Source: Siphonodentalium dalli
Taxonomy: Eukaryota > Mollusca > Scaphopoda > Gadilida > Siphonodentaliidae
Direction of reading: 5' to 3'
DNA: 64,000 nucleotides
Assembly: GCA_032622095.1 (NCBI GenBank)
Contig: CP136065.1
Span: 100,201,343-100,265,342 of the forward strand
Shown here: piece by piece, positions 18,923-64,000 of the stretch
Numbering within the stretch: position 1 is the stretch's first letter
How the letters are laid out: every line of letters starts with the position of its first letter
Translations under genes and position numbers: made by a program
Notes under the pieces: generated by a model
Told to the model about the DNA's origin: nothing
The model's database searches: none
Seen by the model: only the letters and a program-made list of their open reading frames with translations

Positions 18923-20424
18923 GTTAAGTTTACACCATTCTTGATTTAATTACATACTGTTATAACTTTAAAAAAATAAACCATATATAGGCCTATGGTA
19001 ACTTTATTTTACAAGTCATATTCTAACTTAACGGCAGAAATTGGTTTAACAAATATCGTAACATACATATATGCAAGTTTGATTGTTATATTTTCTTTTT
19101 ATGGCGATACTGATTACCCACATAAATTACTTACTGTATCTTCAGCTTTAAGGAATAAGGGCACGTGTTCCAAAAACAATTCCTGATATTTCAAAACTAA
19201 TGGATTAATATATATGAAAAACTATATCTGGAATATTTTTATTATTTTTTTGTATTGATGTGGCACAAATTTTAAGAACCATAAATGCGCTGGAAATTAT
19301 AAGTCCACTTTCTTTACTTTTGGGACATGAAAAAATCTTTAAAATATCACAGGCTCCAGATAAAAAGAGCTGCAAAATAGAACTTTTTTCACAAGTTATG
19401 TTATATATCTTACATATCCATGGCATTATATCTTGGGATCTTGAAAGGGAACTTAATTGTTCTTGATTGAATAAACAACCACCGATGCACATCCAGCAAA
19501 CATATTTTTCTATATATATAAATTGTTATGTCATGGTTGTTGGTCAATGGACATTTGTATTGAGACGAGTTCGAGGTCATATGTCCATGGCCAAATTCCC
19601 AGCTGACCAGGTATATCTAATACTGCATGGTTGCCTATTCCAGTTCAATGGTACCTGCTTGAGCGCACGGACCAGCATGAGTATAAATATATATATTTAT
19701 TGGGCTGACAAATAAGTAGCTGATTTATTCTTCATTGTAATGTATGGGGGTATAATGTTATACCATGTAATAACAAAATTAGCACAATATTATGACACAA
19801 ATGAAGCTGCCGCTCACATATATAGCGCCAAGAAAATACGATATTAGTGATTGGCTTGTTTCGTGAAATGTCTCCTGATATTTATTCATATGACAAAGCT
19901 GATATGTGAAATTATAGAGATTCCCCTGGATATATATCATACTAGCCGATGAGCCCGACGTTGTCCGGGCTATTCAAAAACCAAATTTCAAGTCGATAGC
20001 TCCACCCGTTTCAAAAACCAAATTTCAAGTCGATAGCACCCGTTTCCGAGATCTCGTCTGCGCATGCGCGAAGCTGGCGTCGCACGGCTCGGCGATCCGA
20101 TAAAATTCGTATCCGGGGCAAGATACATTCACATAGCAACTTTCAAGTCGATAGCTCCACCCGTTTCCGAGATCTCGTCTGCGCATGCGAGAAGCTGGTG
20201 TCGCACGGGCTCGGCGACCCGATAAAATTCGTATCCGGGGCAAGATACATTCACATAGCAAATTTCAAGTCGATAGCTCCACCCGTTTCCGAGATCTCGT
20301 CTGCGCATCCGCGAAGCGGGCGCCGCACGGGCTCGCCAATACGACAACGTTCACCGCCTGGTCAAACTACACACACGTACCAAGTTTCGTCCCGATCGGT
20401 CGAGAATCGTAGATTTGTATTAAT

Positions 20425-23428: not shown

Positions 23429-24423
23429 TATATATTTTGAAGACCTCTGTCTGTTTGTTTGTATGTTTGTCTGTATGTTTGTCTGTATGTTTGTCATTTA
23501 TACAAATCTACGATTCTCGACCGATCGGGACCAAACTTGGTACGTGTGTGTAGTTTGACCAGGCGGTGGACGTTGTCGTATTGGCGAGCCCGTGCGGCGC
23601 CCGCTTCGCGCATGCCCAGACGAGATCTCGGAAACGGGTGGAGCTATCGACTTGAAATTTGGTATGTGAATGTATCTTGCCCCGGATACGAATTTTATAT
23701 GGTCGCCGAGCCCGTGCGACGCCAGCTTCGCGCATGCGCAGACCATATCTCGGAAACGGGTGGAGCTATCGACTTGAAATTTGGTATGTGAATGTATCTT
23801 GCCCCGGATACGAATTTTATCGGGTCGCTGAGATCGTGCGACGCCTGCTTCGCGCATGCGCAGACCAGATCTCGGAAACGGGTAGAGCTATCGACTTGAA
23901 ATTTCGGGTTGGGTAGAGCTATCGACTTGAAATTTGGTTTTTGAATAGCCCGGACAACGTCGGGCTCATCGGCTAGTATATATATATTTTGAAGACCTCT
24001 GTCTGTTTGTCTGTCTGTTTGTCTGTTTGTTTGTTTGTCATTTATACAAATCTACGATTCTCGACCGATCGGGACGAAACTTGGTACGTGTGTGTAGTTT
24101 GACCAGGCGGTTGACGTTGTCGCATTGGCGAGCCCGTGTGGCGCCCGCTTCGCGCATGCGCAGACGAGATCTCGGAAACGGGTGGAGCTATCGACTTGAA
24201 ATTTGGTATGTGAATGTATCTTGCCCCGGATACGAATTTTATCGGGTCGCCGAGCCCGTGTGACGCAAGCTTCGCGCATGCGCAGACCATATCTCGGAAA
24301 CGGGTGGAGCTATCGACTTGAAATTTGGTTTTTGAATAGCCCGGACAACGTCGGGCTGGGTAGAGCTATAGACTTGAAATTTGGTTTTATGAATAGCCCG
24401 GACAACGTCGGGCTCAACGGCTA

Positions 24424-37700: not shown

Positions 37701-40700
37701 AGCGCAAATACCACATAATGTGATTAAGCCCAAATAGGGCATTTACTCTTTTAAAAGCACAATGAATTGCGGTTAAGCGCAATTAATTGCGCCTAAGCGT
37801 AATTGTAACTGCTATATCTAACCTACCCATAAACTATTGGCATGACCTGGTGTATCACCTAGCAACACACGAGGAGGATTGTGCTAATTTTAACCTGTTT
37901 TAATTAGCCTGAGTACTCAATGGTCAACTGTGAGTATGTATACACCAATGATAATCCCTAATTACATATTTTTGCATTACTATGGTCATATAGCTTGCAT
38001 GTGGTGTCACTGTGTGAGGGCTTGCTTACCTATCATGGTTTACTTATTGACTTAAATGAAGGGAAACAACATATTTTCATATTATCAGCATCTCTGTCCA
38101 AAAAATTGATGTCTCGTTCCTGGAGCTTTGGTTCTCAGTCCTCGAGCTCTATTATATTATGTTTATTAAATCAGCATCTCTTGCACAGATCTATAGTATT
38201 TCGATGGTCATATAGCGCGAATGTGGTGTCACTGAGGGCTTGCTTCCCTCATATGGTGTGCCTGTATACTGGAAAATTGAAGAAAATCAACGTCGCCCCG
38301 ACTAATACAGAAGGTAATGCTATCGCGAGTAGCCCCAACTGATACAGAAGATAATATAATGCTATCACGAGTCGCCCCGACTAAAACAGAAGTTAATAAT
38401 ATCGCCAATTTGATAAAGAAGTTGGGCTAGCTCCCTACCCATCCAAACCAATGAAAACAAGAGGTGATGTGTCAATAGAAGTTTAGGTTAAGTTAAGGAT
38501 AAACCTGTTTACTCACCAGGGTGTTTAGTTAGATAGCGCAAATAACTGAGCTTAAGCGCAATTCATTATTAAATGTGAATCGGCCTCCCATTATACCAAC
38601 CACATACAATCGGACACATATTCTATTTAGTAACTAAAACTTTAGGGTGGGATCGATGCTATAAAAAATCCTCATCATTGAATTGAATTTCATGAATTGT
38701 TTGTGAAATATGTACCAAACTAAATTCCTGGAATTTTTTTTAATTAAAGCACTAAAAGTGACTTAAAGGTCCCAAATTTGCTATCAGGGCATTGGAATTT
38801 TCAATGTGTTTCGGTGGGGACACCCCCCCCCCTGATCACCACAAATTGAGAAGGGGAAACACCCTCCCATACCAACCTCCGGCTCAGGCCAACGGCATTT
38901 GGCATATAAACAGGTGTCCCCAAATTAGCCATGGATATGTTACTGTATGGTGTATACATACTCTATGCCGTGGATTAACTATATGGTACGCATACCTGGC
39001 CCTGTAACAGAACCTTGTCATATATATAATAAAATGACCGCGGCGGATTGGTGTTGGGGGGGGGGGCTAACCACCCGATAGGTCCTTTCCCTATAACACC
39101 GCATTTTAAGCCTTTAATTTAGAAAACAAGAAAAAAAAGCGTGAGAACGAACACAGCGACGCGACCGTCCGCCGAGCGATCCGGAGACCATAATGACTAT
39201 GACCGCGAAATGTATCTATGTTATCTCCTAATTAGGAGATAATACGTCTCCTAACTATGAGGTATTATCTCCTAATTAGGACTTATTGTCTCCTAATTAG
39301 GATACATTATCTCCTAATTAGGATATATTATCTCCTAATTAGGAGATATTAAGTCCTAATTAGGAGATAATAAGTCCTAGTTAGGAGATAATATCTCCTA
39401 ATTAGGAGATATTGTGTGCCAATTAGGAGATACTAAGTCCTACTTAGTATATAGTATCTCCTAATTAGGAGATACTAAGTCCTAATTAGGAGATAATAAT
39501 AAGTCCTATTATGAGATACTAAGTCCTTATAAATGATAATAAGTCCGATTTGGGAGATCCTAAGTCCTAATTAGGAGATATTTTCTCCTAATTAGGAGAT
39601 ACTAAGTCCTAATTAGGAGGTAATAATAAGTCCTATTAGGGATACTTAGTCCTCATTAGGAGATAATAAGTCCGAATTTGGAGATACTAAGTCCTAATTT
39701 GAAATACTAATTCCTAATTAGGTGACACTAAGTCCTCATTAGGAGATATTATCTCCTAATTATCTCCTAATTAACTAACACGCTTCCATAGCATTTAAAA
39801 TTTAATATATTATACCCCTAAATATATATATAGAAAGTTCATGTAATAACTACACCACCTTCAATTGCAGGCTTCTTCCAGAGTCTATACGCTGGCTCAC
39901 GGACAACAACAAGACTGAGAAAGCACACGAAATGCTCAGGATAATGGGCCAACAAAATGGCGTTGATGTGTCTAACATAACAATTACCACGAACGAACGC
40001 GTGACTCAGCGAGAGGGTGTACTCGATGCTTTAAAAGAACCCATACTCTTCATACGCCTGTCCATAATGGGGCTAAACTGGTAAGTTAACTCTAACCCTT
40101 ACATGACTGGAGCTTCCTGAAATTTTGTGAAAACCCTGTGCCAATGCATTCTCCTATATATGCGAGTCTCCCATAGAGAGCCTCCCGTATATAAGATAAT
40201 GCATTGGCCTATCTATATATAACAATATTTACCATGACCTTGTAAGCCATTTCATTCTCTTATATAATTATGCGAGGGTCCCTATGGGAGATCTTTAATG
40301 CTGCACCAGCGCAGGTCCCGTCGTGAAAGGTTAATGCTCAACCGATTGTCTACAGGGTCCGGAACATACGACATAATTTGCTCGAAAATGGCGCAAAAAT
40401 TATTCGCCGTTTTAGTTTATTCACCCATATACATAACACAACCAAAAAGATAGCAATGAGCTATATAACATGTTTGTCTATAGTCACTATGAATCCCGTT
40501 CCCATATATATATGACCGTTGAGAATATATGTGTTTGGTCACCAATTTTGTGATATTTCAACGCTGAAATCCCTTTAAAACTAATATTTTCTATGTCAGG
40601 TTTTGCAGCATTCGAGATTAGGAACATATTGGAAAAACCAATGTTAAAATCTCGCCGCCATTTTTGAGCAAAGTATGACGTGGGTTCTTGGCTCTGGTTT

Positions 40701-43700
40701 AGACAAACTGCATGGCCACGCTGGTCTGACCACTGTCATCGGTGTTTTGTCGGTCACATTTCATTCTGATTGATCTAGCCAATGTCCAAATGGACATGGA
40801 CAGTTAGGTTTATGAACATATTAGGAGAACGCATTGTAACCGAACAAAGTTTTTTTTAAATGCGAGATTTCCTCACATGCTGTATACGTGATGGCAGTGG
40901 TTATGTCAGCGTATCGAGTGGACTGCATGAACGCGATCATGCAGTTTGTGGTCTAACAGCGATTTTGACTGCGGAGAGGTGTTCTGAGTTGCAGCACTCG
41001 CCGTGAGAGCAATTGTTTTATTAGGGCAGAAGCTTGACGACTCCACCATTAAATGCACCTAAATTTAACCCTTTACCCAGCAGAACGGCCCTGTGCCAAT
41101 GCATTATCTTATATATGCGAGTCGACCATAGGTCGCCTCGCATATATAAGAGAAAGCATTGGCTTAACACATATTAAAAATGATAAAATTATCAAAGAAT
41201 GTAGAAAAAATGGTAAAAAGTGTAAAAAAAAGGATTTTTTTTTAGGCCAATGCATTCTCTTATATATGCGAGGCGACCTATGGTCGACTCGCATATTTAA
41301 GAGAATGCATTGGCACAGGGCATAACTGTAACCATCACAATGTGGTCAATGAACCGGTTCCAATTATATCCATATTTGTATGGTTTTATTGAGACAGACC
41401 GAAGATATTTTAGCTGTTGAAGCTTTATTTGGGCGTTTTTGGCCGTTTTGTTGGGTAAAGGGTTAATGCAAGTGTTTTCATCCGGACAGTCGAAGAAATT
41501 TTATCTATTCTACACATTGTGTTGATTATGACATCTAAACACAGGACGATATATTGTGGTACTTTCACAAGAAACATCACCGATGAAGGAAATATGTATT
41601 GTTTTCCACAATTCCAATTTAAAATAGAATAGAATGGTCTTGTATTTTTCCAAATTCAAAATTTCAAACTATGAGTAACGCGTTCACACACAAAAAAACT
41701 GTCAGATCAAGTTGCATCCATAATCAATGGAACGCAATCCGACAAACATTTATTCCTTATATTAATTTACGCTCAAATAGCAGATTAAAAGAGAACTTAG
41801 TGCCCATTTAAACGATATTTTGGTATAAACGCGTTAAGGGTCATATGCACGTTTTGCCAAACTTGAAAATTTCCTGGAATTTCAAAATTGATTTTATCGA
41901 CATCTGCCAGAATTTCTTGTGAAATTTGGTACAAGTTATTACTGTGACACAATATTTAAGAATCATTGACCCATTGGATATTATAACTTCATTTACTTTA
42001 CTTTTATGGAATGAAAAATATTTTTAAAACTTCACTGTTTTCAGGTACCAAGAACTTCTGTAAAATATATTTTTTTCTAAAGTGCAGTCCATATATCCAT
42101 GACATCATCCATGTATCTCAAGATCAGATCTTGAGATACATGGATGATGTCAGACATGATAGGAGACTGAATTATTCTTTATTTGTAAAATTTACTGATT
42201 ATTTTCATATAGAAAGGCAACTACCCATAAATAATTTTCTATATTTGAGAATTTTCATGTCATGCAATATTGGGCTGATATGAGTTGTGGGCCATGGGTT
42301 CATAACCAAGTTAAACCTGACCCCATATCTCTTAAAACTGTGGCCTAATTCAAGTTGATCAATCTAAAATCCATTGTTTTTGTTGTTCAGATTCTATACT
42401 GTGAAAATGATGATATGAGAAACTCAAGATTGTTTGCCAGATAGATCCAGAGAAATTCTTTGTTGAAAATCTCTTGCCATTTTAGCTGGATTTATGCAAA
42501 ACGTGCGTCTCCTCCTTAATTGTAAGTTGCTTGCATATACAATATGGACACAAGTCGAGGCCCGCCCGCGATGTCACATGCAGCCTGAGAACCAATGTCC
42601 TCAGGCTGCATTGAACTCCCGCAGCGCGAATGTATGTATATGAGTGTAAATGTTGATAAATTTGTTTTTGGCGTTTGCTATTTTCTGTTTGTAGGGCAAT
42701 ATCGTCGATGGTGTATTATGGACTCACATTTACGTCGGGTTCGATAGGCGGCAGCGTCTTCCTGAACTACGTCATATTTGCTCTCGTCGAATTACCAGCG
42801 AATATATTTTGCATTTTTCTGTTGGATGTCGTTGGGAGGAAGAAGCTGTATATTTCCATGGCAATGACAAGCGGCATCATGTGTTTCCTCGCTATATTTC
42901 CAACTCTTCACGATCCCGTAGGTACGGAGCCATTTTATCGAACGCCTCAGTTGTGTTGAGGCAGTGTGTGTGACTTTATGCAAACAACGTTCAGTAGGGG
43001 TCTCTGCTAACGGGGACCAAATTCATTCTGTTTCGTGATTTACGCCTTGAATTTGGTAGTAAACTAGAATATAGGCATTGGCTCTATGACGCTCCGATGC
43101 TCTGCTGTGTTCGCCATCTAATCGTGACGTAGCCTCACAGAATCAGTGCCCACTCAAGGAGTTAATCACGCACCCGACAGAATAAATCGGGTCTTCGTTG
43201 CCAGAGACTTAAATTTACTAAACGTTGATTAAATAAAGTCACACACACTTAGTACAATTCTGGCGTAACTTCCATCTTCGTGGCTTCTTATGATGGTAGC
43301 GCAGCTCAGTTTGCAATGTGCATGGCGAAACATTGTTTACCTTTGTCGGGTTTGAATGCTATTTTGAGAGATAATAGTACGACATTAGAGAAGGGTACCG
43401 ACCTACATGTATATCGACTTTCGTCGCTGGGTTTTCTCCCTTTTTATGTTATTAAAAGTGCCATTGGGTCCTTCTGATTTACTATGATGTTAGTGGGGCA
43501 AAATGATGCTGTTAAGAATAATATTAACCATAGACGCACACTCCACTAATCATGTCAAGTGTGCGTGGTTTGTTTGTAAGTCAAGGGTTATTTTTATACA
43601 GAAAATACGCGTGTATACTTCTCATTTATACACTGAGATTTAACAACATGTAATTTATCATTTTTATAAAATTAATTATTTTGTCTATATTTCAAAACTT

Positions 43701-45754: not shown

Positions 45755-47041
45755 AATTACATAAAAATCTGTAAATCAAATAATATCAAGAAGTACATGA
45801 CAATAGATTGACTTCATTATTAATAACTTTCCAGCAATGAAATTTCGCATGCCAAAACTATTGTTATGTTAACAGTATTGTTATTGTGGAATTGCCGATA
45901 AAAGTCGAAAATCACATTCAGATTGAAATATGTGAACTTGATGCACGATTGACCATGTTTGTTGACAAACCACTGTAACGGTTTTGATTACATAACAACG
46001 GTTTCAACACGTGACATGTCGTTACTGAAATACTATCAATAATCAATATAAGAATAAAGTTTATCTATTTACTAATGTTCTTCTCAGTGGTGGTGTTTAT
46101 AGAGACTTATATTATTTGCACATTTACCCACTTCGAGCGCCGTGTGTCCCTTTAATTGAGAATATATTTTAAACGTTGTTGGTCCGTGGTCCGTGGATAA
46201 TCACAACACAGACATGTTTACGGCGCTAACTATACCGCAGAATTTACAGATCACGATTTATAAATAAGAATAAAATAGAAAGATCAATTCGAATATTGAG
46301 TTATGTAAAAAGTTAAATATATAAGAATAAAATAGCAAAATGAAACTTAAAGATGGCCTATAGCTTCCTATAATAAGTGTTATATAGTTTGCTGTTTATA
46401 AAATAATAGATATGAATCGAAGACCCATGTATGGAAACGCTTTCATTATATTATAATTGATTTTATTTCGAATTTTCTGGTATAATACATGCCATCAATT
46501 TTTGGACATTTTACGGCTCGCAGATCATCGCAAGCGGGAGAAGTTTCGCTATCTGAGTTAGCATCAACGTCCTATCACGGTCTGTTCTAAAAATAGTATC
46601 CCAAAACTGTCCCAATTGATTATCTCATTATATAAGAAAAAGTCGATATAAAATAAATATTAATTGATAGAAGCGTTTCCGGACAGATATTTTCGACTCA
46701 TATTTATTATGTTATACCCTGAACCCTATATACAACGTATTTATATATGAAGAGATTATCCTTATTTAAAATATTGAATTAAACTGCCTGTGAAAGAATA
46801 AAATTGCAAGATACAAATTAAAATATTGAATTGAATGAAAAGATCAAATTAAGAGTTGGAATATTGATTTATATGTATAATGAATTATGACTATCTTGAC
46901 CCTCCATAGCATTAGTGTCGCACCATCAAACTATTGAGTTTTGTCGGAATCTTGCGGAATGATAGAAAACCATTTTTTCACAATAATTCACGAATTTTCA
47001 CCCCTGTTTAAGTGGTCCTTCTAATTTTCTCTGAAGTTGGT
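45755..47041. other. AT-rich stretch before the minisatellite
   Basis: No gene, exon or repeat that I recognise. Very AT-rich from 46250 to 46880. Confidence 0.5.
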
Positions 47042-50000
47042 GGGTCCTGCTTAATTGATATGATGGTCGTGTTTAATTGATATGATGGTCCTGCTTAATT
47101 GATATGATGGTCGTGTTTAATTGATATGATGGTCCTGCTTAATTGATATGATGGTCCTGTTTAATTGATATGATGGTCCTGTTTAATTGATATGATGGTC
47201 CTGTTTATTTGATAGGATGGTCCAGCTTAATTGATATGATGGTCCTGTTTAATTGATATGATGGTCCTGTTTAATTGATATGATGGTCCTGTTTAATTGA
47301 TATGATGGTCCTGTTTAATTGATATGGTGGTTCTGTTTAATTGATATGATGGTTCTGTTTAATTGGTAGGATGGTCCTGTTTAATTGATATGATGGTCCT
47401 GTTTAATTGATATGATGGTCCTGCTTAATTGATATGGTGGTTCTGTTTAATTGATATGATGGTCCTGTTTAATTGGTATGATGGTCCTGTTTAATTGATA
47501 TGATGGTCCTGTTTAATTGATATGATGGTCCTGCTTAATTGATATGATGGTCCTGTTTAATTGATATGATGGTCCTGTTTAATTGATATGATGGTTCTGT
47601 TTAATTGATATGATGGTCCAGCTTAATTGATATGATGGTTCTGTTTAATTGATATGATGGTTCTGTTTAATTGATATGATGGTCCTGCTTAATTGATATG
47701 ATGGTCCTGTTTAATTGATATGATGGTCCTGTTTAATTGATATGATGGTCCTGTTTAATTGATATGGTGGTCCTGCTTAATTGATATGATGGTCCAGCTT
47801 AATTGATATGATGGTCCTGTTTAATTGATATGATGGTCCAGCTTAATTGATATGATGGTCCTGTTTAATTGGTAGGATGGTCCTGTTTAATTGATATGAT
47901 GGTCCTGCTTAATTGATATGATGGTCCTGTTTAATTGATATGACGGTCCTGTTTAATTGATATGGTGGTCCTGCTTAATTGATATGATGGTTCTGCTTAA
48001 TTGATATGATGGTCCTGCTTAATTGATAAGATGGTCCTGCTTAATTGATATGATGGTCCTGTTTAATTGATATGATGGTCCTGTTTAATTGGTAGGATGG
48101 TCATGTTTAATTGATATGATGGTTCTGATTAATTGATATGATGGTCCTGTTTAATTGATATGGTGGTCCTGCTTAATTGATATGATGGTCCTGCTTAATT
48201 GATATGATGGTCCTGTTTAATTGATATGATGGTCCTGTTTAATTGATATGATGGTCCTGTTTAATTGGTAGGATGGTTCTGTTTAATTGATATGATGGTT
48301 CTGATTAATTGATATGATGGTCCTGTTTAATTGATATGGTGGTCCTGCTTAATTGATATGATGGTCCTGCTTAATTGATATGATGGTCCTGTTTAATTGA
48401 TATGATGGTCCTGTTTAATTGATATGATGGTCCTGTTTAATTGGTAGGATGGTCCTGTTTAATTGATATGGTGGTCCTGCTTAATTGATATGATGGTCCT
48501 GCTTAATTGATATGATGGTCCTGTTTAATTGATATGATGGTCCTGTTTAATTGATATGATGGTCCTGTTTAATTGGTAGGATGGTCCTGTTTAATTGATA
48601 TGATGGTTCTGCTTAATTGATATGATGGTCCTGCTTAATTGATATGATGGTCCTGTTTAATTGATATGATGGTCCTGTTTAATTGATATGATGGTCCAGC
48701 TTAATTGATATGATGGTGCTGTTTAATTGATATGATGGTCCTGCTTAATTGATATGATGGTCCTGTTTAATTGGTAGGATGGTCCTGTTTAATTGATATG
48801 ATGGTCCTGTTTAATTGATATGATGGTCCTGCTTAATTGATATGATGGTCCTGCTTAATTGATATGATGGTTCTGCTTAATTGATATGATGGTCCTGCTT
48901 AATTGATATGATGGTTCTGCTTAATTGATATGATGGTCCTGCTTAATTGATATGATGGTCCTGTTTAATTGGTAGGATGGTCCTGTTTAATTGATATGAT
49001 GGTCCTGTTTAATTGATATGATGGTCCTGTTTAATTGATATGGTGGTCCTGCTTAATTGATATGATGGTTCTGCTTAATTGATATGATGGTCCTGCTTAA
49101 TTGATAAGATGGTCCTGCTTAATTGATATGATGGTCCTGTTTAATTGATATGATGGTCCAGCTTAATTGATATGATGGTCCTGTTTAATTGATATGATGG
49201 TCCTGCTTAATTGATATGATGGTCCTGTTTAATTGGTAGGATGGTCCTGTTTAATTGATATGATCGTCCTGTTTAATTGATATGATGGTCCTGCTTAATT
49301 GATATGATGGTCCTGTTTAATTGGTAGGATGGTCCTGTTTAATTGATATGATGGTCCTGTTTAATTGATATGATGGTCCAGCTTAATTGATATGATGGTC
49401 CTGCTTAATTGATATGATGGTCCTGTTTAATTGATATGATGGTCCTGTTTAATTGGTAGGATGGTCCTGTTTAATTGATATGATGGTTCTGATTAATTGA
49501 TATGATGGTCCTGTTTAATTGATATGGTGGTCCTGCTTAATTGATATGATGGTCCTGCTTAATTGATATGATGGTCCTGCTTAATTGATATGATGGTCCT
49601 GCTTAATTGATATGGTGATCCTGCTTAATTGATAAGATGGTCCTGCTTAATTGATATGATGGTCCTCTTTAATTGATATGATGGTCCAGCTTAATTGATA
49701 TGATGGTCCTGTGTAATTGGTAGGATGGTCCTGTTTAATTGATATGATGGTCCAGCTTAATTGATATGATGGTCCTGTTTAATTGGTAGGATGGTCCTGT
49801 TTAATTGATATGATGGTCCAGCTTAATTGATATGATGGTCCTGTTTAATTGATATGATGGTCCAGCTTAATTGATATGATGGTCCTGTTTAATTGATGTG
49901 ATGGTTCTGATTAATTGATATGATGGTCCTGTTTAATTGATATGATGGTCCTGTTTAATTGGTAGGATGGTCCTGTTTAATTGATATGATGGTTCTGATT

Positions 50001-53000
50001 AATTGATATGATGGTCCAGCTTAATTGATATGATGGTCCTGTTTAATTGGTAGGATGGTCCTGTTTAATTGATATGATGGTCCAGCTTAATTGATATGAT
50101 GGTCCTGTTTAATTGATATGATGGTCCTGCTTAATTGATATGATGGTCCTGTTTAATTGATATGATGGTTCTGATTAATTGATATGATGGTCCAGCTTAA
50201 TTGATATGATGGTCCTGTTTAATTGGTAGGATGGTCCAGTTTAATTGATATGATGGTCCAGCTTAATTGATATGATGGTCCTGTTTAATTGATATGATGG
50301 TTCTGATTAATTGATATGATGGTCCTGTTTAATTGATATGATGGTCCTGTTTAATTGGTAGGATGGTTCTGTTTAATTGATATGATGGTTCTGATTAATT
50401 GATATGATGGTCCTGTTTAATTGATATGATGGTCCTGCTTAATTGATATGATGGTCCTGTTTAATTGATATGATGGTCCTGCTTAATTGATATGATGGTC
50501 CTGTTTAATTGATATGATGGTCCTGTTTAATTGATATGATGGTTCTGATTAATTGATATGATGGTCCTGTTTAATTGATATGATGGTTCTAATTAATTGA
50601 TATGATGGTCCTGTTTAATTGATATGATGGTTCTAATTAATTGATATGATGGTTCTGATTAATTGATATGATGGTCCTGTTTAATTGATATGATGGTTCT
50701 AATTAATTGATATGATGGTCCTGTTTAATTGATATGATGGTTCTGATTAATTGATATGATGGTCCTGTTTAATTGATATGATGGTCCTGTTTAATTGATA
50801 TGATGGTCCTGCTTAATTGATATGATGGTCCTGTTTAATTGATATGATGGTCCTGCTTAATTGATATGATGGTCCTGTTTAATTGATATGATGGTCCTGC
50901 TTAATTGATATGATGGTCCTGTTTAATTGATATGATGGTCCTGTTTAATTGATATGATGGTTCTGATTAATTGATATGATGGTCCTGTTTAATTGATATG
51001 ATGGTTCTGATTAATTGATATGATGGTCCTGTTTAATTGATATGATGGTTCTAATTAATTGATATGATGGTCCTGTTTAATTGATATGATGGTTCTAATT
51101 AATTGATATGATGGTTCTGATTAATTGATATGATGGTCCTGTTTAATTGATATGATGGTTCTAATTAATTGATATGATGGTCCTGTTTAATTGATATGAT
51201 GGTTCTGATTAATTGATATGATGGTCCTGTTTAATTGATATGATGGTCCTGTTTAATTGATATGATGGTCCTGTTTAATTGATATGATGGTCCTGTTTAA
51301 TTGATATGATGGTCCTGCTTAATTGATATGATGGTTCTGCTTAATTGATATGATGGTCCTGCTTAATTGATATGATGGTTCTGCTTAATTGATATGATGG
51401 TCCTGCTTAATTGATATGATGGTCCTGTTTAATTGGTAGGATGGTCCTGTTTAATTGATATGATAGTCCTGTTTAATTGATATGATGGTCCTGTTTAATT
51501 GATATGTTGGTCCTGCTTAATTGATATGATGGTTCTGCTTAATTGATATGATGGTCCTGCTTAATTGATAAGATGGTCCTGCTTAATTGATATGATGGTC
51601 CTGTTTAATTGATATGATGGTCCAGCTTAATTGATATGATGGTCCTGTTTAATTGATATGATGGTCCTGCTTAATTGATATGATGGTCCTGTTTAATTGG
51701 TAGGATGGTCCTGTTTAATTGATATGATCGTCCTGTTTAATTGATATGATGGTCCTGCTTAATTGATATGATGGTCCTGTTTAATTGGTAGGATGGTCCT
51801 GTTTAATTGATATGATGGTCCTGTTTAATTGATATGATGGTCCAGCTTAATTGATATGATGGTCCTGCTTAATTGATATGATGGTCCTGTTTAATTGATA
51901 TGATGGTCCTGTTTAATTGGTAGGATGGTCCTGTTTAATTGATATGATGGTTCTGATTAATTGATATGATGGTCCTGTTTAATTGATATGGTGGTCCTGC
52001 TTAATTGATATGATGGTCCTGCTTAATTGATATGATGGTCCTGCTTAATTGATATGATGGTCCTGCTTAATTGATATGGTGATCCTGCTTAATTGATAAG
52101 ATGGTCCTGCTTAATTGATATGATGGTCCTGTTTAATTGATATGATGGTCCAGCTTAATTGATATGATGGTCCTGTGTAATTGGTAGGATGGTCCTGTTT
52201 AATTGATATGATGGTCCAGCTTAATTGATATGATGGTCCTGTTTAATTGGTAGGATGGTCCTGTTTAATTGATATGATGGTCCAGCTTAATTGATATGAT
52301 GGTCCTGTTTAATTGATATGATGGTCCAGCTTAATTGATATGATGGTCCTGTTTAATTGATGTGATGGTTCTGATTAATTGATATGATGGTCCTGTTTAA
52401 TTGATATGATGGTCCTGTTTAATTGGTAGGATGGTCCTGTTTAATTGATATGATGGTTCTGATTAATTGATATGATGGTCCAGCTTAATTGATATGATGG
52501 TCCTGTTTAATTGGTAGGATGGTCCTGTTTAATTGATATGATGGTCCAGCTTAATTGATATGATGGTCCTGTTTAATTGATATGATGGTCCTGCTTAATT
52601 GATATGATGGTCCTGTTTAATTGATATGATGGTTCTGATTAATTGATATGATGGTCCAGCTTAATTGATATGATGGTCCTGTTTAATTGGTAGGATGGTC
52701 CAGTTTAATTGATATGATGGTCCAGCTTAATTGATATGATGGTCCTGTTTAATTGATATGATGGTTCTGATTAATTGATATGATGGTCCTGTTTAATTGA
52801 TATGATGGTTCTGTTTAATTGATATGATGGTCCTGTTTAATTGATATGATGGTTCTGATTAATTGATATGATGGTTCTGATTAATTGATATGATGGTTCT
52901 GATTAATTGATATGATGGTCCAGTTTAATTGATATGATGGTCCAGCTTAATTGATATGATGGTCCTGTTTAATTGATATGATGGTTCTGATTAATTGATA

Positions 53001-56000
53001 TGATGGTCCTGTTTAATTGATATGATGGTCCTGTTTAATTGGTAGGATGGTCCTGTTTAATTGATATGATGGTCCTGTTTAATTGATATGATGGTTCTGA
53101 TTAATTGATATGATGGTCCTGTTTAATTGATATGATGGTCCTGTTTAATTGATATGATGGTCCCGTTTAATTGATATGATGGTCCTGTTTAATTGATATG
53201 ATGGTTCTGTTTAATTGATATGATGGTTCTGATTAATTGATATGATGGTCCCGTTTAATTGATATGATGGTCCTGCTTAATTGATATGATGGTCCTGTTT
53301 AATTGATATGATGGTCCTGCTTAATTGATATGATGGTCCTGTTTAATTGATATGATGGTCCCGTTTAATTGATATGATGGTCCTGCTTAATTGATATGAT
53401 GGTCCTGTTTAATTGATATGATGGTCCTGCTTAATTGATATGATGGTCCTGTTTAATTGATATGATGGTCCTGTTTAATTGATATGATGGTCCTGCTTAA
53501 TTGATATGATGGTCCTGTTTAATTGATATGATGGTCCCGTTTAATTGATATGATGGTCCTGCTTAATTGATATGATGGTCCTGTTTAATTGATATGATGG
53601 TCCTGTTTAATTGATATGATGGTCCTGTTTAATTGATATGATGGTCCTGTTTAATTGATATGATGGTCCTGTTTAATTGATATGATGGTCCTGTTTAATT
53701 GATATGATGGTTCTGATTAATTGATATGATGGTTCTGTTTAATTGATATGATGGTCCTGTTTAATTGATATGATGGTCCTGTTTAATTGATATGATGGTC
53801 CTGTTTAATTGATATGATGGTTCTGCTTAATTGGTAGGATGGTCCTGTTTAATTGATATGATGGTTCTGATTAATTGATATGATGGTCCTGTTTAATTGA
53901 TATGATGGTCCTGCTTAATTGATATGATGGTCCTGTTTAATTGATATGATGGTCCTGTTTAATTGATATGATGGTTCTGATTAATTGATATGATGGTCCT
54001 GTTTAATTGATATGATGGTTCTAATTAATTGATATGATGGTCCTGTTTAATTGATATGATGGTTCTAATTAATTGATATGATGGTTCTGATTAATTGATA
54101 TGATGGTCCTGTTTAATTGATATGATGGTTCTAATTAATTGATATGATGGTCCTGTTTAATTGATATGATGGTTCTGATTAATTGATATGATGGTCCTGT
54201 TTAATTGATATGATGGTCCTGCTTAATTGATATGATGGTCCTGTTTAATTGATATGATGGTCCTGCTTAATTGATATGATGGTTCTGATTAATTGATATG
54301 ATGGTCCTGTTTAATTGATATGATGGTCCTGCTTAATTGATATGATGGTCCTGTTTAATTGATATGATGGTCCTGTTTAATTGATATGATGGTTCTGATT
54401 AATTGATATGATGGTCCTGTTTAATTGATATGATGGTTCTGATTAATTGATATGATGGTCCTGTTTAATTGATATGATGGTTCTAATTAATTGATATGAT
54501 GGTCCTGTTTAATTGATATGATGGTTCTAATTAATTGATATGATGGTTCTGATTAATTGATATGATGGTCCTGTTTAATTGATATGATGGTTCTAATTAA
54601 TTGATATGATGGTCCTGTTTAATTGATATGATGGTTCTGATTAATTGATATGATGGTCCTGTTTAATTGATATGATGGTCCTGTTTAATTGATATGATGG
54701 TCCTGTTTAATTGATATGATGGTCCTGTTTAATTGATATGATGGTCCTGCTTAATTGATATGATGGTTCTGCTTAATTGATATGATGGTCCTGCTTAATT
54801 GATATGATGGTTCTGCTTAATTGATATGATGGTCCTGCTTAATTGATATGATGGTCCTGTTTAATTGGTAGGATGGTCCTGTTTAATTGATATGATAGTC
54901 CTGTTTAATTGATATGATGGTCCTGTTTAATTGATATGTTGGTCCTGCTTAATTGATATGATGGTTCTGCTTAATTGATATGATGGTCCTGCTTAATTGA
55001 TAAGATGGTCCTGCTTAATTGATATGATGGTCCTGTTTAATTGATATGATGGTCCAGCTTAATTGATATGATGGTCCTGTTTAATTGATATGATGGTCCT
55101 GCTTAATTGATATGATGGTCCTGTTTAATTGGTAGGATGGTCCTGTTTAATTGATATGATCGTCCTGTTTAATTGATATGATGGTCCTGCTTAATTGATA
55201 TGATGGTCCTGTTTAATTGGTAGGATGGTCCTGTTTAATTGATATGATGGTCCTGTTTAATTGATATGATGGTCCAGCTTAATTGATATGATGGTCCTGC
55301 TTAATTGATATGATGGTCCTGTTTAATTGATATGATGGTCCTGTTTAATTGGTAGGATGGTCCTGTTTAATTGATATGATGGTTCTGATTAATTGATATG
55401 ATGGTCCTGTTTAATTGATATGGTGGTCCTGCTTAATTGATATGATGGTCCTGCTTAATTGATATGATGGTCCTGCTTAATTGATATGATGGTCCTGCTT
55501 AATTGATATGGTGATCCTGCTTAATTGATAAGATGGTCCTGCTTAATTGATATGATGGTCCTGTTTAATTGATATGATGGTCCAGCTTAATTGATATGAT
55601 GGTCCTGTGTAATTGGTAGGATGGTCCTGTTTAATTGATATGATGGTCCAGCTTAATTGATATGATGGTCCTGTTTAATTGGTAGGATGGTCCTGTTTAA
55701 TTGATATGATGGTCCAGCTTAATTGATATGATGGTCCTGTTTAATTGATATGATGGTCCAGCTTAATTGATATGATGGTCCTGTTTAATTGATGTGATGG
55801 TTCTGATTAATTGATATGATGGTCCTGTTTAATTGATATGATGGTCCTGTTTAATTGGTAGGATGGTCCTGTTTAATTGATATGATGGTTCTGATTAATT
55901 GATATGATGGTCCAGCTTAATTGATATGATGGTCCTGTTTAATTGGTAGGATGGTCCTGTTTAATTGATATGATGGTCCAGCTTAATTGATATGATGGTC

Positions 56001-59000
56001 CTGTTTAATTGATATGATGGTCCTGCTTAATTGATATGATGGTCCTGTTTAATTGATATGATGGTTCTGATTAATTGATATGATGGTCCAGCTTAATTGA
56101 TATGATGGTCCTGTTTAATTGGTAGGATGGTCCAGTTTAATTGATATGATGGTCCAGCTTAATTGATATGATGGTCCTGTTTAATTGATATGATGGTTCT
56201 GATTAATTGATATGATGGTCCTGTTTAATTGATATGATGGTTCTGTTTAATTGATATGATGGTCCTGTTTAATTGATATGATGGTTCTGATTAATTGATA
56301 TGATGGTTCTGATTAATTGATATGATGGTTCTGATTAATTGATATGATGGTCCAGTTTAATTGATATGATGGTCCAGCTTAATTGATATGATGGTCCTGT
56401 TTAATTGATATGATGGTTCTGATTAATTGATATGATGGTCCAGCTTAATTGATATGATGGTCCTGTTTAATTGATATGATGGTTCTAATTAATTGATATG
56501 ATGGTCCCGTTTAATTGATATGATGGTCCTGCTTAATTGATATGATGGTCCTGTTTAATTGATATGATGGTCCTGCTTAATTGATATGATGGTCCTGTTT
56601 AATTGATATGATGGTCCCGTTTAATTGATATGATGGTCCTGCTTAATTGATATGATGGTCCTGTTTAATTGATATGATGGTCCTGCTTAATTGATATGAT
56701 GGTCCTGTTTAATTGATATGATGGTCCTGTTTAATTGATATGATGGTCCTGCTTAATTGATATGATGGTCCTGTTTAATTGATATGATGGTCCCGTTTAA
56801 TTGATATGATGGTCCTGCTTAATTGATATGATGGTCCTGTTTAATTGATATGATGGTCCTGTTTAATTGATATGATGGTCCTGTTTAATTGATATGATGG
56901 TCCTGTTTAATTGATATGATGGTCCTGTTTAATTGATATGATGGTCCTGTTTAATTGATATGATGGTTCTGATTAATTGATATGATGGTTCTGTTTAATT
57001 GATATGATGGTCCTGTTTAATTGATATGATGGTCCTGTTTAATTGATATGATGGTCCTGTTTAATTGATATGATGGTTCTGCTTAATTGGTAGGATGGTC
57101 CTGTTTAATTGATATGATGGTCCTGTTTAATTGATATGATGGTTCTGCTTAATTGGTAGGATGGTCCTGTTTAATTGATATGATGGTTCTGATTAATTGA
57201 TATGATGGTCCTGTTTAATTGATATGATGGTCCTGTTTAATTGATATGATGGTCCTGTTTAATTGATATGATGGTCCCGTTTAATTGATATGATGGTCCT
57301 GCTTAATTGATATGATGGTCCTGTTTAATTGATATGATGGTCCTGCTTAATTGATATGATGGTCCTGTTTAATTGATATGATGGTCCTGTTTAACTGATA
57401 TGATGGTTCTGATTAATTGATATGATGGTCCTGTTTAATTGATATGATGGTCCTGTTTAATTGATATGATGGTCCTGCTTAATTGATATGATGGTCCTGT
57501 TTAATTGATATGATGGTCCTGTTTAATTGATATGATAGTCCTGTTTTATTGATATGATGGTCCTGTTTAATTGATATGATGGTCCTGTTTAATTGATAAG
57601 ATGGTCCTGTTTAATTGATATGATGGTCCTGTTTAATTGATATGATGGTCCTGTTTAATTGATATGATGGTCCTGATTAATTGATATGATGGTCCTGTTT
57701 AATTGATATGATGGTCCTGTTTAATTGATATGATGGTCCTGCTTAATTGATATGATGGTTCTGATTAATTGATATGATGGTCCTGTTTAATTGATATGAT
57801 GGTCCTGTTTAATTGATATGATGGTCCTGCTTAATTGATATGATGGTTCTGTTTAATTGATATGATGGTCCTGTTTAATTGATATGATGGTCCTGCTTAA
57901 TTGATATGATGGTCCTGTTTAATTGATATGATGGTCCTGCTTAATTGATATGATGGTTCTGTTTAGTTGGTAGGATGGTCCTGTTTAATTGATATGATGG
58001 TCCTGTTTCATTGATATGATGGTTCTGATTAATTGATATGATGGTCCTGTTTAATTGATATGATGGTCCTGTTTAATTGATATGATGGTCCTGCTTAATT
58101 GATATGATGGTTCTGTTTAATTGATATGATGGTCCTGTTTAATTGATATGATGGTCCTGCTTAATTGATATGATGGTCCTGTTTAATTGATATGATGGTC
58201 CTGCTTAATTGATATGATGGTTCTGTTTAATTGGTAGGATGGTCCTGTTTAATTGATATGATGGTTCTGATTAATTGATATGATGGTCCTGCTTAATTGA
58301 TATGATGGTTCTGTTTAATTGATATGATGGTCCTGTTTAATTGATATGATGGTCCTGTTTAATTGATATGATGGTTCTGATTAATTGATATGATGGTCCT
58401 GCTTAATTGATATGATGGTCCTGCTTAATTGATATGATGGTCCTGTTTAATTGATATGATGGTCCTGTTTAATTGATATGATGGTCCTGTTTAATTGATA
58501 TGATGGTTCTGATTAATTGATATGATGGTCCTGTTTAATTGATATGATGGTTCTGTTTAATTGATGTGATGGTCCTGTTTAATTGATATGATGGTTCTGA
58601 TTAATTGATATGATGGTCTTGTTTAATTGGTAGGATGGTCCTGTTTAATTGGTAGGATGGTCCTGTTTAATTGGTAGGATGGTCCTGTTTAATTGATATG
58701 ATGGTTCTGATTAATTGATATGATGGTCCTGTTTAATTGATATGATGGTTCTGATTAATTGATATGATGGTCCTGTTTAATTGATATGATGGTCCTGTTT
58801 AATTGATATGATGGTCCTGCTTAATTGATATGATGGTTCTGTTTAATTGATATGATGGTCCTGTTTAATTGGTAGGATGGTCCTGTTTAATTGATATGAT
58901 GGTTCTGATTAATTGATATGATGGTCCTGTTTAATTGATGTGATGGTCCTGTTTAATTGATATGATGGTTCTGATTAATTGATATGATGGTCCTGTTTAA

Positions 59001-62000
59001 TTGATATGATGGTCCTGTTTAATTGATATGATGGTTCTGATTAATTGATATGATGGTCCTGTTTAATTGATATGATGGTCCTGTTTAATTGATATGATGG
59101 TTCTGTTTAATTGATATGATGGTTCTGATTAATTGATATGATGGTTCTGCTTAATTGATAGGATGGTCCTGTTTAATTGGTAGGATGGTCCTGTTTAATT
59201 GATATGATGGTTCTGATTAATTGATATGATGGTCCTGTTTAATTGATAAGATGGTCCTGTTTAATTGATATGATGGTCCTGTTTAATTGATATGATGGTC
59301 CTGTTTAATTGATATGATGGTCCTGATTAATTGATATGATGGTCCTGTTTAATTGATATGATGGTCCTGCTTAATTGATATGATGGTTCTGATTAATTGA
59401 TATGATGGTCCTGTTTAATTGATATGATGGTCCTGCTTAATTGATATGATGGTTCTGATTAATTGATATGATGGTCCTGTTTAATTGATATGATGGTCCT
59501 GTTTAATTGATATGATGGTCCTGCTTAATTGATATGATGGTTCTGTTTAATTGATATGATGGTCCTGTTTAATTGATATGATGGTCCTGCTTAATTGATA
59601 TGATGGTCCTGTTTAATTGATATGATGGTCCTGCTTAATTGATATGATGGTTCTGTTTAGTTGGTAGGATGGTCCTGTTTAATTGATATGATGGTCCTGT
59701 TTAATTGATATGATGGTTCTGATTAATTGATATGATGGTCCTGTTTAATTGATATGATGGTCCTGTTTAATTGATATGATGGTCCTGCTTAATTGATATG
59801 ATGGTTCTGTTTAATTGATATGATGGTCCTGTTTAATTGATATGATGGTCCTGCTTAATTGATATGATGGTCCTGTTTAATTGATATGATGGTCCTGCTT
59901 AATTGATATGATGGTTCTGTTTAATTGGTAGGATGGTCCTGTTTAATTGATATGATGGTTCTGATTAATTGATATGATGGTCCTGCTTAATTGATATGAT
60001 GGTTCTGTTTAATTGATATGATGGTCCTGTTTAATTGATATGATGGTCCTGTTTAATTGATATGATGGTTCTGATTAATTGATATGATGGTCCTGCTTAA
60101 TTGATATGATGGTCCTGCTTAATTGATATGATGGTCCTGTTTAATTGATATGATGGTCCTGTTTAATTGATATGATGGTCCTGTTTAATTGATATGATGG
60201 TTCTGATTAATTGATATGATGGTCCTGTTTAATTGATATGATGGTTCTGTTTAATTGATGTGATGGTCCTGTTTAATTGATATGATGGTTCTGATTAATT
60301 GATATGATGGTCTTGTTTAATTGGTAGGATGGTCCTGTTTAATTGGTAGGATGGTCCTGTTTAATTGGTAGGATGGTCCTGTTTAATTGATATGATGGTT
60401 CTGATTAATTGATATGATGGTCCTGTTTAATTGATATGATGGTTCTGTTTAATTGATGTGATGGTCCTGTTTAATTGATATGATGGTTCTGATTAATTGA
60501 TATGATGGTCCTGTTTAATTGGTAGGATGGTCCTGTTTAATTGGTAGGATGGTCCTGTTTAATTGGTAGGATGGTCCTGTTTAATTGATATGATGGTTCT
60601 GATTAATTGATATGATGGTCCTGTTTAATTGATGTGATGGTCCTGTTTAATTGATATGATGGTTCTGATTAATTGATATGATGGTCCTGTTTAATTGATA
60701 TGATGGTCCTGTTTAATTGATATGATGGTTCTGATTAATTGATATGATGGTCCTGTTTAATTGATATGATGGTCCTGTTTAATTGATATGATGGTCCTGT
60801 TTAATTGATATGATGGTTCTGTTTAATTGATGTGATGGTCCTGTTTAATTGATATGATGGTTCTGATTAATTGATATGATGGTTCTGCTTAATTGATATG
60901 ATGGTTCTGCTTAATTGATATGATGGTTCTGCTTAATTGATAGGATGGTCCTGTTTAATTGGTAGGATGGTCCTGTTTAATTGATATGATGGTTCTGTTT
61001 AATTGATATGATGGTTCTGATTAATTGATATGATGGTTCTGCTTAATTGATAGGATGGTCCTGTTTAATTGGTAGGATGGTCCTGTTTAATTGATATGAT
61101 GGTTCTGATTAATTGATATGATGGTTCTGTTTAATTGGTAGGATGGTCCTGTTTAATTGATATGATGGTTCTGCTTAATTGATATGATGGTCCTGCTTAA
61201 TTGATATGATGGTCCTGTTTAATTGATATGATGGTTCTGATTAATTGATATGATGGTCCTGTTTAATTGATATGATGGTCCTGTTTAATTGGTAGGATGG
61301 TCCTGTTTAATTGATATGATGGTTCTGATTAATTGATATGATGGTCCTGTTTAATTGATATGATGGTCCTGCTTAATTGATATGATGGTTCTGATTAATT
61401 GATATGATGGTCCTGTTTAATTGATATGATGGTTCTGCTTAATTGATATGATGGTCCTGTTTAATTGATATGATGGTCCTGTTTAATTGATATGATGGTC
61501 CTGTTTAATTGATATGATGGTCCTGTTTAATTGATATGATGGTCCTGTTTAATTGATATGATGGTTCTGATTAATTGATATGATGGTCCTGCTTAATTGA
61601 TATGATGGTCCTGTTTAATTGGTAGGATGGTCCTGTTTAATTGGTAGGATGGTCCTGTTTAATTGGTAGGATGGTCCTGTTTAATTGATATGATGGTTCT
61701 GATTAATTGATATGATGGTCCTGTTTAATTGATATGATGGTTCTGTTTAATTGATGTGATGGTCCTGATTAATTGATATGATGGTCCTGTTTAATTGATA
61801 TGATGGTTCTGTTTAATTGATATGATGGTCCTGTTTAATTGATATGATGGTCCTGCTTAATTGATATGATGGTTCTGATTAATTGATATGATGGTTCTGA
61901 TTAATTGATATGATGGTTCTGTTTAATTGGTAGGATGGTCCTGTTTAATTGATATGATGGTTCTGTTTAATTGATATGATGGTTCTGTTTAATTGATATG

Positions 62001-64000
62001 ATGGTCCTGTTTAATTGATATGATGGTTCTGATTAATTGATATGATGGTCCTGTTTAATTGATATGATGGTCCTGTTTAATTGGTAGGATGGTCCTGTTT
62101 AATTGATATGATGGTTCTGATTAATTGATATGATGGTCCTGTTTAATTGATATGATGGTCCTGCTTAATTGATATGATGGTTCTGATTAATTGATATGAT
62201 GGTCCTGTTTAATTGATATGATGGTTCTGCTTAATTGATATGATGGTCCTGTTTAATTGATATGATGGTCCTGTTTAATTGATATGATGGTCCTGTTTAA
62301 TTGATATGATGGTCCTGTTTAATTGATATGATGGTCCTGTTTAATTGATATGATGGTTCTGATTAATTGATATGATGGTCCTGTTTAATTGATATGATGG
62401 TCCTGTTTAATTGATATGATGGTCCTGTTTAATTGATATGATGGTCCTGTTTAATTGATATGATGGTCCTGTTTAATTGATATGATGGTTCTGATTAATT
62501 GATATGATGGTTCTGATTAATTGATATGATGGTCCAGCTTAATTGATATGATGGTCCTGTTTAATTGGTAGGATATGGTCCTGTTTAATTGATATGATGG
62601 TCCAGCTTAATTGATATGATGGTCCTGATTAATTGATATGATGGTCCTGCTTAATTGGTAGGATGGTCCTGTTTAATTGATATGATGGTTCTGATTAATT
62701 GATATGATGGTCCTGCTTAATTGATATGATGGTCCTGTTTAATTGATATGATGGTTCTGATTAATTGATATGATGGTTCTGCTTAATTGGTAGGATGGTC
62801 CTGTTTAATTGATATGATGGTTCTGATTAATTGATATGATGGTTCTGCTTAATTGGTAGGATGGTCCAGTTTAATTGATATGATGGTCCAGCTTAATTGA
62901 TATGATGGTCCTGTTTAATTGATATGATGGTTCTGATTAATTGATATGATGGTCCTGTTTAATTGATATGATGGTCCTGTTTAATTGATATGATGGTTCT
63001 GCTTAATTGATATGATGGTCCTGTTTAATTGATATGATGGTCCTGTTTAATTGATATGATGGTTCTGCTTAATTGGTAGGATGGTCCTGTTTAATTGATA
63101 TGATGGTCCTGTTTAATTGATATGATGGTCCTGCTTTATTGATATGATGGTCCTGTTTAATTGATATGATGGTCCTGTTTAATTGATATGATGGTCCTGT
63201 TTAATTGATATGATGGTCCTGTTTAATTGATATGATGGTCCTGTTTAATTGATATGATGGTCCTGTTTAATTGGTAGGATGGTCCTGTTTAATTGATATG
63301 ATGGTCCTGTTTAATTGGTATGATGGTCCTGTTTAATTGGTAGGATGGTTCTGTTTAATTGATATGATGGTTCTGATTAATTGATATGATGGTCCTGCTT
63401 AATTGATATGATGGTCCTGTTTAATTGATATGATGGTCCTGTTTAATTGATATGATGGTCCTGTTTAATTGATATGGTGGTCCTGTTTAATTGATATGGT
63501 GGTCCTGTTTAATTGATGTGATGGTTCTGTTTAATTGATATGATGGTCCTGTTTAATTGATATGATGGTCCTGTTTAATTGATATGGTGGTCCTGTTTAA
63601 TTGATATGGTGGTCCTGTTTAATTGATGTGATGGTTCTGTTTAATTGATATGATGGTCCTGTTTAATTGATATGATGGTCCTGTTTAATTGATATGATGG
63701 TCCTGTTTAATTGATATGGTGGTCCTGTTTAATTGATGTGATGGTTCTGTTTAATTGATATGATGGTCCTGTTTAATTGATATGGTGGTCCTGTTTAATT
63801 GATGTGATGGTTCTGTTTAATTGATATGATGGTCCTGTTTAATTGATATGATGGTTCTGATTAATTGATGTGATGGTTCTGTTTAATTGATATGATGGTC
63901 CAGCTTAATTGATATGATGGTTCTGCTTAATTGGTATGATGGTCCTGTGTAATTGGTAGGATGGTCCTGTTTAATTGATATGATGGTCCAGCTTAATTGA
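47042..64000. repeat. 22-bp minisatellite, about 770 monomers, open at window edge
   Basis: Monomer core TTAATTGATATGATGG followed by a 6-base variable box (TCCTGT most often; also TCCTGC, TTCTGA, TTCTGT, TCCAGC, TTCTAA, TCCCGT). The core has its own variants GGTAGG, GATGTG, GATAAG and GATATGGTGG. The first core starts at 47051; the core at 62561 is exactly 705 x 22 bases later, and only one 2-bp insertion (near 62573) shifts the register before the end. Long-range copies are spaced by 77, 112 and 156 monomers. The unit is not a multiple of three and carries TAA and TGA, so it codes for nothing. It continues beyond 64000. Confidence 0.98.

What the first reader, a model, noticed from the sequence alone, without database searches (positions are those of the whole stretch)
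47042..64000. Minisatellite with near-perfect 22-bp register over 17 kb
Cores at 47051 and 62561 are exactly 705 monomers apart, and the whole stretch to 63971 contains only one net 2-bp insertion. Monomers differ by substitutions at a few fixed positions but hardly ever by length. Most minisatellites of this size gather indels, so either turnover is fast or length is selected or mechanistically fixed (22 bp is close to two helical turns).
Basis: partly seen in the sequence, partly recalled or inferred. Interest (0 to 1): 0.72.

Follow-up and report, generated by a model that had tools for sequence, protein, structure and literature searches.

The report
Minisatellite grown inside a transposon
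A 43-kb block of 22-bp repeats appears to be the overgrown arm of one small mobile DNA element, and it probably keeps its rhythm because it grows and shrinks by whole repeats, not because 22 bp is special.

Summary
47042-64000 is an uninterrupted 22-bp array (770 full monomers in the window) with one sub-monomer length change, a 2-bp insertion at 62573-62574. It runs on beyond the window to 42,700 bp, about 1,941 monomers, with three sub-monomer indels, two of them probably one event copied by duplication.

It lies inside a damaged copy of a palindromic non-autonomous DNA transposon of about 520 bp. Copies with both ends have perfect 5-bp target duplications, 12 of 12. Arms usually hold two tandem 28/29-bp units (16 of 22). 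At many fetched insertions these have grown into 29-bp arrays, up to about 204 units. Here the unit is 6-7 bp shorter and reached about 1,941 copies. Every genome match to an exact 22-bp tandem-pair pattern (1,126) lies in this array.

The register needs no selection. A 14.2-kb tandem duplication differs between its halves by one substitution and three whole-monomer gap events, with no sub-monomer indel.

New member of a known kind: transposon-born satellites such as Tetris.

The parts
46999..47041 (+). Outer end of a terminal inverted repeat of the host transposon copy (starts CACCCCTGTTTAAGTGGTCC), ending in the trace of a 29-bp-type unit (GTTGGTGGGTCC)
   Evidence: nhmmer with a model of 11 copies against 99 kb: model 450-518 at 47067-46999 (-), E 1.8e-10, and model 1-66 at 46999-47065 (+), E 9.6e-8; sequence
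47042..64000 (+). 22-bp tandem array, consensus GGTCCTGTTTAATTGATATGAT; window part of a 42,700-bp array that ends at G000:C5:100291083 (window-equivalent 89741)
   Evidence: TRF, monomer alignment, array end
49705..63940 (+). First half of a 14.2-kb tandem block duplication inside the array; the second half is window-equivalent 63941 to about 78264, almost wholly outside the window
   Evidence: Lag of 647 monomers with exact runs of 303 and 205 monomers; 645 of 647 monomers identical, 1 substitution, 3 whole-monomer gap events
62573..62574 (+). The only sub-monomer length change in the window part: inserted AT; a second one at window-equivalent 76897 is read as its copy
43459..43521 (.). Fragment of another copy of the same palindromic transposon family, about 3.5 kb left of the array
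   Evidence: nhmmer E 2.8e-9 (-) and 3.8e-7 (+)

Best explanation
The array is a runaway expansion of the sub-terminal tandem repeats of one copy of a palindromic (foldback-like), non-autonomous DNA transposon. Shown: the parent element is about 520 bp, self-complementary along its length in the four copies tested, ends in CACCCCTGG...CCAGGGGTG, makes 5-bp target duplications, and in most arms carries two 28/29-bp units. Shown: at many fetched insertions these units form longer 29-bp arrays. Shown: in the window copy a terminus stands just before the array, and the element's central body, inverted, stands just after it; the far terminus is a weaker match. Inferred: a 6-7-bp deletion shortened one unit to 22 bp. 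Inferred: unequal exchange or replication-based block duplication in register spread that unit to about 1,941 copies, with a 14.2-kb tandem duplication among the latest steps. Inferred: the register is kept because homology-driven gain and loss moves whole monomers and keeps overwriting older mutations, so few sub-monomer indels have accumulated. I found no sign of a function of the array itself, but tested none.
For: Element and mobility: of 14 fetched copies, 11 had both ends found and all 11 have perfect 5-bp target duplications; L042, L051 and L054 lacked a recognised end and were not counted. A 12th copy, L056, split by large inserts, has ATTAG on both sides. L045 and L047 share flanks, so these are 11 distinct sites. 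Four of the 11 elements were tested for self-complementarity and all four are palindromic end to end, 73-75%. A body search had 3,870 first-look candidates (a loose count), 40 scored, all 40 matching. The exact 35-base terminus occurs 224 + 251 times. Seed: units start at 16/17 and 44-46 in 16 of 22 arms. Link of arrays to element: 25 of 29 fetched loci with the 29-bp unit (L001, L014-L041) carry body or terminal sequence of the element; 0 of 29 in reversed-sequence controls. L002 and L003 overlap L001 and were left out; L001/L023 and L019/L020 are neighbours, so not all 29 are independent. Window copy: terminus at 46999 (E 1.8e-10) and inverted body at window-equivalent 89865-89745 (E 5.3e-16). 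Far terminus about 90097-90129: weak by model (E 0.012) but with TTAGCAGGACCACTT as in other copies' ends. Turnover: the 14.2-kb copies show 1 substitution, 3 whole-monomer gap events, 0 sub-monomer indels. Four further block pairs show 15 substitutions, 8 whole-monomer gap events, 0 sub-monomer indels; two of these pairs share one side.
Against: The window copy has no intact target duplication (ATTTT left, GTATT right, 3 of 5 equal), so its own transposition is inferred from its relatives. Its far terminus is a weak model match, separated from the body by a 212-bp palindrome that looks like a nested insertion. Four of 29 loci (L017, L020, L024, L035) showed no element sequence in the stretch fetched. 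Fewer indel types than in 29-bp arrays (p = 0.005 with all 19, 0.10 without two) could hide some extra constraint. Two of the three gap events between the 14.2-kb halves (one gain and one loss, a few monomers apart) could instead be one conversion tract. Raw reads were not available, so assembly error in a near-identical 14-kb duplication cannot be excluded.
Confidence: 0.87

Rival explanations
1. Monomer length is under selection or fixed by chromatin or helical phasing, so that length variants are removed.
For: Two sub-monomer indel types against 38 substitution types over 42.7 kb; fewer indel types than in 19 pooled relatives, p = 0.005.
Against: The same family lives as 29-bp arrays at many loci and as 28 bp at L040. 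Sister blocks differ by whole-monomer gains and losses, so array length is free to change. In the non-duplicated part only 24 substitution types are rare (3 copies or fewer; a 25th rare entry in the listing is the 1-bp deletion), so only a few indels are expected. The p value is 0.10 without the two most degraded arrays, and three short relatives have no indels at all.
Confidence: 0.06
2. The extreme regularity or the 14.2-kb duplication is an assembly or polishing artefact.
For: Two halves of 14.2 kb are almost identical, and such blocks are hard to assemble.
Against: No N in the array stretches beyond the window (L004, L005, L011, L012), and only A, C, G, T in the window monomers. Both flanks carry pieces of one transposon. 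The halves differ by a substitution and by whole monomers. Several other arrays of the same assembly keep many indels.
Confidence: 0.08
3. The array is a centromeric or otherwise chromosome-wide functional satellite.
For: Long, homogeneous, strand-skewed array in the interior of a 264-Mb contig.
Against: The exact tandem-pair pattern occurs nowhere else in the nine contigs; 43 kb at one place; it sits inside a dispersed mobile element.
Confidence: 0.02

Closest known systems
Tetris foldback transposon and its TIR-220 satellite, Drosophila virilis (PMC4079207; abstract, section 11 and part 1 of 2 of the Discussion read)
   Same: Non-autonomous foldback-like DNA transposon with tandem repeats inside its terminal inverted repeats; short arrays inside elements, long homogeneous arrays grown from them; unequal crossing-over proposed.
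   Different: Unit about 220 bp against 28/29 then 22 bp; target duplications 8-10 bp (Mutator suggested there) against 5 bp; longest array in that assembly 66 copies against about 1,941; here a shortened unit took over at one locus.
Galileo-type elements with extra transposase sites in tandem TIR repeats (only as described in PMC4079207)
   Same: Tandem units inside the terminal inverted repeats.
   Different: No transposase or binding site is known here; kinship with Galileo was not tested.
Cg_HINE non-autonomous Helentrons carrying satellite-like central repeats, Pacific oyster (PMC7492417; abstract and outline seen)
   Same: Mobile elements disperse short tandem arrays over a genome.
   Different: Helentrons lack target duplications and full-length inverted symmetry (recalled); this element has both.

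Membership tests
Miniature inverted-repeat / foldback-like non-autonomous DNA transposon (parent element) | Terminal inverted repeats | tested here: met
   Self-complementary over the full 517-523 bp in 4 of 4 copies tested (of 11), 73-75%
Miniature inverted-repeat / foldback-like non-autonomous DNA transposon (parent element) | Target site duplication of fixed length | tested here: met
   5 bp, perfect in 11 of 11 copies with both ends, out of 14 fetched, and in L056
Miniature inverted-repeat / foldback-like non-autonomous DNA transposon (parent element) | High copy number and no coding capacity | tested here: met
   Exact terminus 224 + 251 times; 3,870 first-look candidates, 40 scored; 490-527 bp in 11 copies; the 8.1-kb copy has no ORF of 120 aa or more
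Miniature inverted-repeat / foldback-like non-autonomous DNA transposon (window copy) | Intact target duplication at the window copy | tested here: not met
   ATTTT against GTATT, 3 of 5; read as decay
Transposon-born satellite or minisatellite (Tetris type) | Array lies inside an element whose normal copies carry the seed repeats | tested here: met
   Terminus before the array, inverted body after it; two seed units in 16 of 22 arms
Transib superfamily | 5-bp target duplication and termini CACWATG (recalled) | tested here: inconclusive
   5 bp met, but termini are CACCCCT; no transposase search was made
hAT superfamily (5-bp subgroup, recalled) | hAT transposase with matching termini | not tested
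   No autonomous partner was identified
Helentron/HINE | No target duplication, asymmetric ends (recalled) | tested here: not met
   Symmetric ends and 5-bp duplications

The most novel reading that the evidence does not exclude
The array units still carry the element's transposase-binding core, and the transposase, cutting or nicking at repeated sub-terminal sites, drives repair-based gain of whole units; loss of 6-7 bp between cores freed one copy from normal excision and let it run away to about 1,941 units.
Probability: 0.07. Interest if true: 0.6.

Novelty: new member of a known kind. Interest (0 to 1): 0.33.

Why it matters
It is a well-assembled series from seed to satellite within one genome: two units per arm in ordinary copies, from a few up to about 204 29-bp units at other insertions, and one shortened unit expanded to about 1,941. 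Sister blocks inside the array show recent change by whole monomers, which explains a near-perfect register without selection. The transposon family was not found in the paper library by four exact strings; repeat databases could not be searched.

Tried and rejected
Coding array: rejected by inspection. 22 is not a multiple of 3, and the consensus contains TAA and TGA on the + strand and TAA on the other.

Autonomous partner: one pair of facing exact termini 8.1 kb apart (C1:190489859-190497968, from the 100 places listed) was followed. It is an ordinary copy split by inserts with no ORF of 120 aa or more. A pair 17 kb apart in the same list was not followed. Superfamily left open.

Organism: not identified. 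Five of the eight ORFs of 130 aa or more in the window were scanned and gave no Pfam family.

A 22-bp unit with G at position 10, as in the relatives: 0 matches. A search meant to show the three stray single-unit matches found none of them, so their place is unknown.

Paper library: four exact strings of 17-23 letters, 0 papers; three keyword searches gave listings, and two of the listed papers were opened.

Limits of the indel comparison: L019/L020 are adjoining stretches and L001/L023 neighbours, so the 19 comparison arrays are not all independent. An unrelated 25-bp array in L018 was analysed (1 indel type, 3 substitution types) but left out of the Fisher test.

Full report
OBSERVATION. The window from 47042 to its end is one tandem array of 22 bp. 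There are 770 full monomers in the window, 41 distinct, and one sub-monomer length change, an inserted AT at 62573-62574. Fetching the chromosome beyond the window shows the array ending at G000:C5:100291083. The whole is 42,700 bp, 1,940.7 monomers, 1,983 substitutions from consensus of 38 types, and 3 sub-monomer indels.

WHERE ELSE IT OCCURS. An exact pattern for tandem pairs of the 22-bp unit has 1,126 matches in the 2.23-Gb assembly, all on one strand, and 1,126 in this array. A shorter single-unit pattern has 1,401 in the genome and 1,398 in the array; three are elsewhere and were not located. A DNA search with the array consensus listed instead arrays of a related 29-bp unit. An exact 29-bp pattern has 586 + 598 matches on the two strands (only the first 100 places are listed, all on C1). 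The 22-bp unit is this unit minus 6-7 bp, depending on whether the 28- or the 29-bp form is the parent; the last bases before the array, GTTGGTGGGTCC, still show the longer form.

WHAT IT SITS IN. Flanks of 29-bp arrays are similar to one another: a common terminus before the array and a common body after it. A search with the body of one copy had 3,870 first-look candidates, a loose count, of which 40 were scored and all 40 matched. Fourteen copies were fetched. In 11 both ends were recognised (490-527 bp), and all 11 have perfect 5-bp target duplications. Three (L042, L051, L054) lacked an end and were dropped from that count. A twelfth copy, split by large inserts, also has a perfect duplication. 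Two of the 12 (L045, L047) share flanks, leaving 11 sites. The element is one long palindrome (4 of 4 tested, 73-75%), and 16 of 22 arms show two units starting at 16/17 and 44-46. A profile of the 11 copies finds body or terminal sequence in 25 of 29 fetched loci with the 29-bp unit, and in 0 of 29 reversed controls; the four without are L017, L020, L024 and L035.

THE WINDOW COPY. The profile places a terminus at 46999, 43 bp before the array (E 1.8e-10), and the body, inverted, from window-equivalent 89745 to 89865, directly after it (E 5.3e-16). A 212-bp palindrome follows, then ATTAGCCAAACAACGC, which resembles the next stretch of body (my reading), and a weak match (E 0.012) to the other terminus, ending about 90129. 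No intact target duplication remains (3 of 5). So the array appears to have taken the place of most of one arm of an old copy.

WHY THE REGISTER IS KEPT. Read as a string of monomers, the array has strong self-similarity at a lag of 647 monomers, with exact runs of 303 and 205 monomers. Aligned, the two halves of this 14.2-kb tandem duplication have 645 of 647 monomers identical, one substitution, a one-monomer gain, a one-monomer loss and a four-monomer insertion, and no sub-monomer indel. The gain and the loss lie a few monomers apart and could be one conversion tract. A further four-monomer gap at the block's end comes from where I cut the second half. Four smaller block pairs give 15 substitutions, 8 whole-monomer gap events and no sub-monomer indel; two of these pairs share one side, so the counts are not fully independent. 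Together that is 11 whole-monomer gap events against 16 substitutions and no sub-monomer indel.

IS THERE STILL AN INDEL DEFICIT? Distinct indel to distinct substitution types: 2 to 38 here; 172 to 585 in 19 comparison arrays of the family (Fisher p = 0.005), 76 to 445 without the two most degraded (p = 0.10). Ratios of single arrays range from 0 to 0.9; three short ones have no indels. In the non-duplicated part of the window array 24 substitution types are rare (3 copies or fewer), against two indel types. At an ordinary ratio of about one indel per ten substitutions (recalled) that is about what one expects. I conclude that youth and homogenisation suffice, while a small extra constraint is not excluded.

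COMPARISON. The nearest described case I found is Tetris in Drosophila virilis, whose terminal repeats hold tandem units of about 220 bp that grew into satellite arrays of up to 66 copies (PMC4079207; abstract, section 11 and part 1 of the Discussion read). Oyster Helentrons that carry satellite-like repeats (PMC7492417, abstract and outline) are a looser parallel. Four exact strings of the element and monomers occur in no paper of the library; repeat databases were not available. Superfamily is open: 5-bp duplications and CAC termini recall Transib, but CACCCCT is not the recalled CACWATG.

VERDICT. Observation confirmed and extended. Interpretation: turnover supported, selection on 22 bp not supported though not excluded. 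Ordinary mechanism, unusually complete record.

Noticed in passing
43459-43521: A fragment of the same palindromic transposon family lies about 3.5 kb left of the array.
   Followed up: partly
39221-39762: A palindrome-rich 21-bp tandem array (TTATCTCCTAATTAGGAGATA, 25.7 copies, 76% matches).
   Followed up: no
15437-16002, 20019-20335, 23585-23904: Three places with the same 122-bp tandem unit (GCGCATGCGCGAAGCTGG within it), the third on the other strand, the first two followed by GACA repeats: possibly another mobile element with internal tandem repeats.
   Followed up: no
L016 (C5:27.2 Mb) and L019/L020 (C5:29.15 Mb): Array flanks at these places, 2 Mb apart, are 97% identical over about 1 kb on one side and 89% over about 0.8 kb on the other, so an array with its flanks seems to have been duplicated.
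   Followed up: no
L001 (C1:259.80 Mb): A 29-bp array whose unit shares the window array's TTTAATTGATAT core, so that core arose before the shortening, or more than once.
   Followed up: partly
window-equivalent 89865-90075 (C5:100291207-100291417): A 212-bp palindrome beside the array, apparently a second small transposon nested in the first; related sequence flanks the array at L017.
   Followed up: partly
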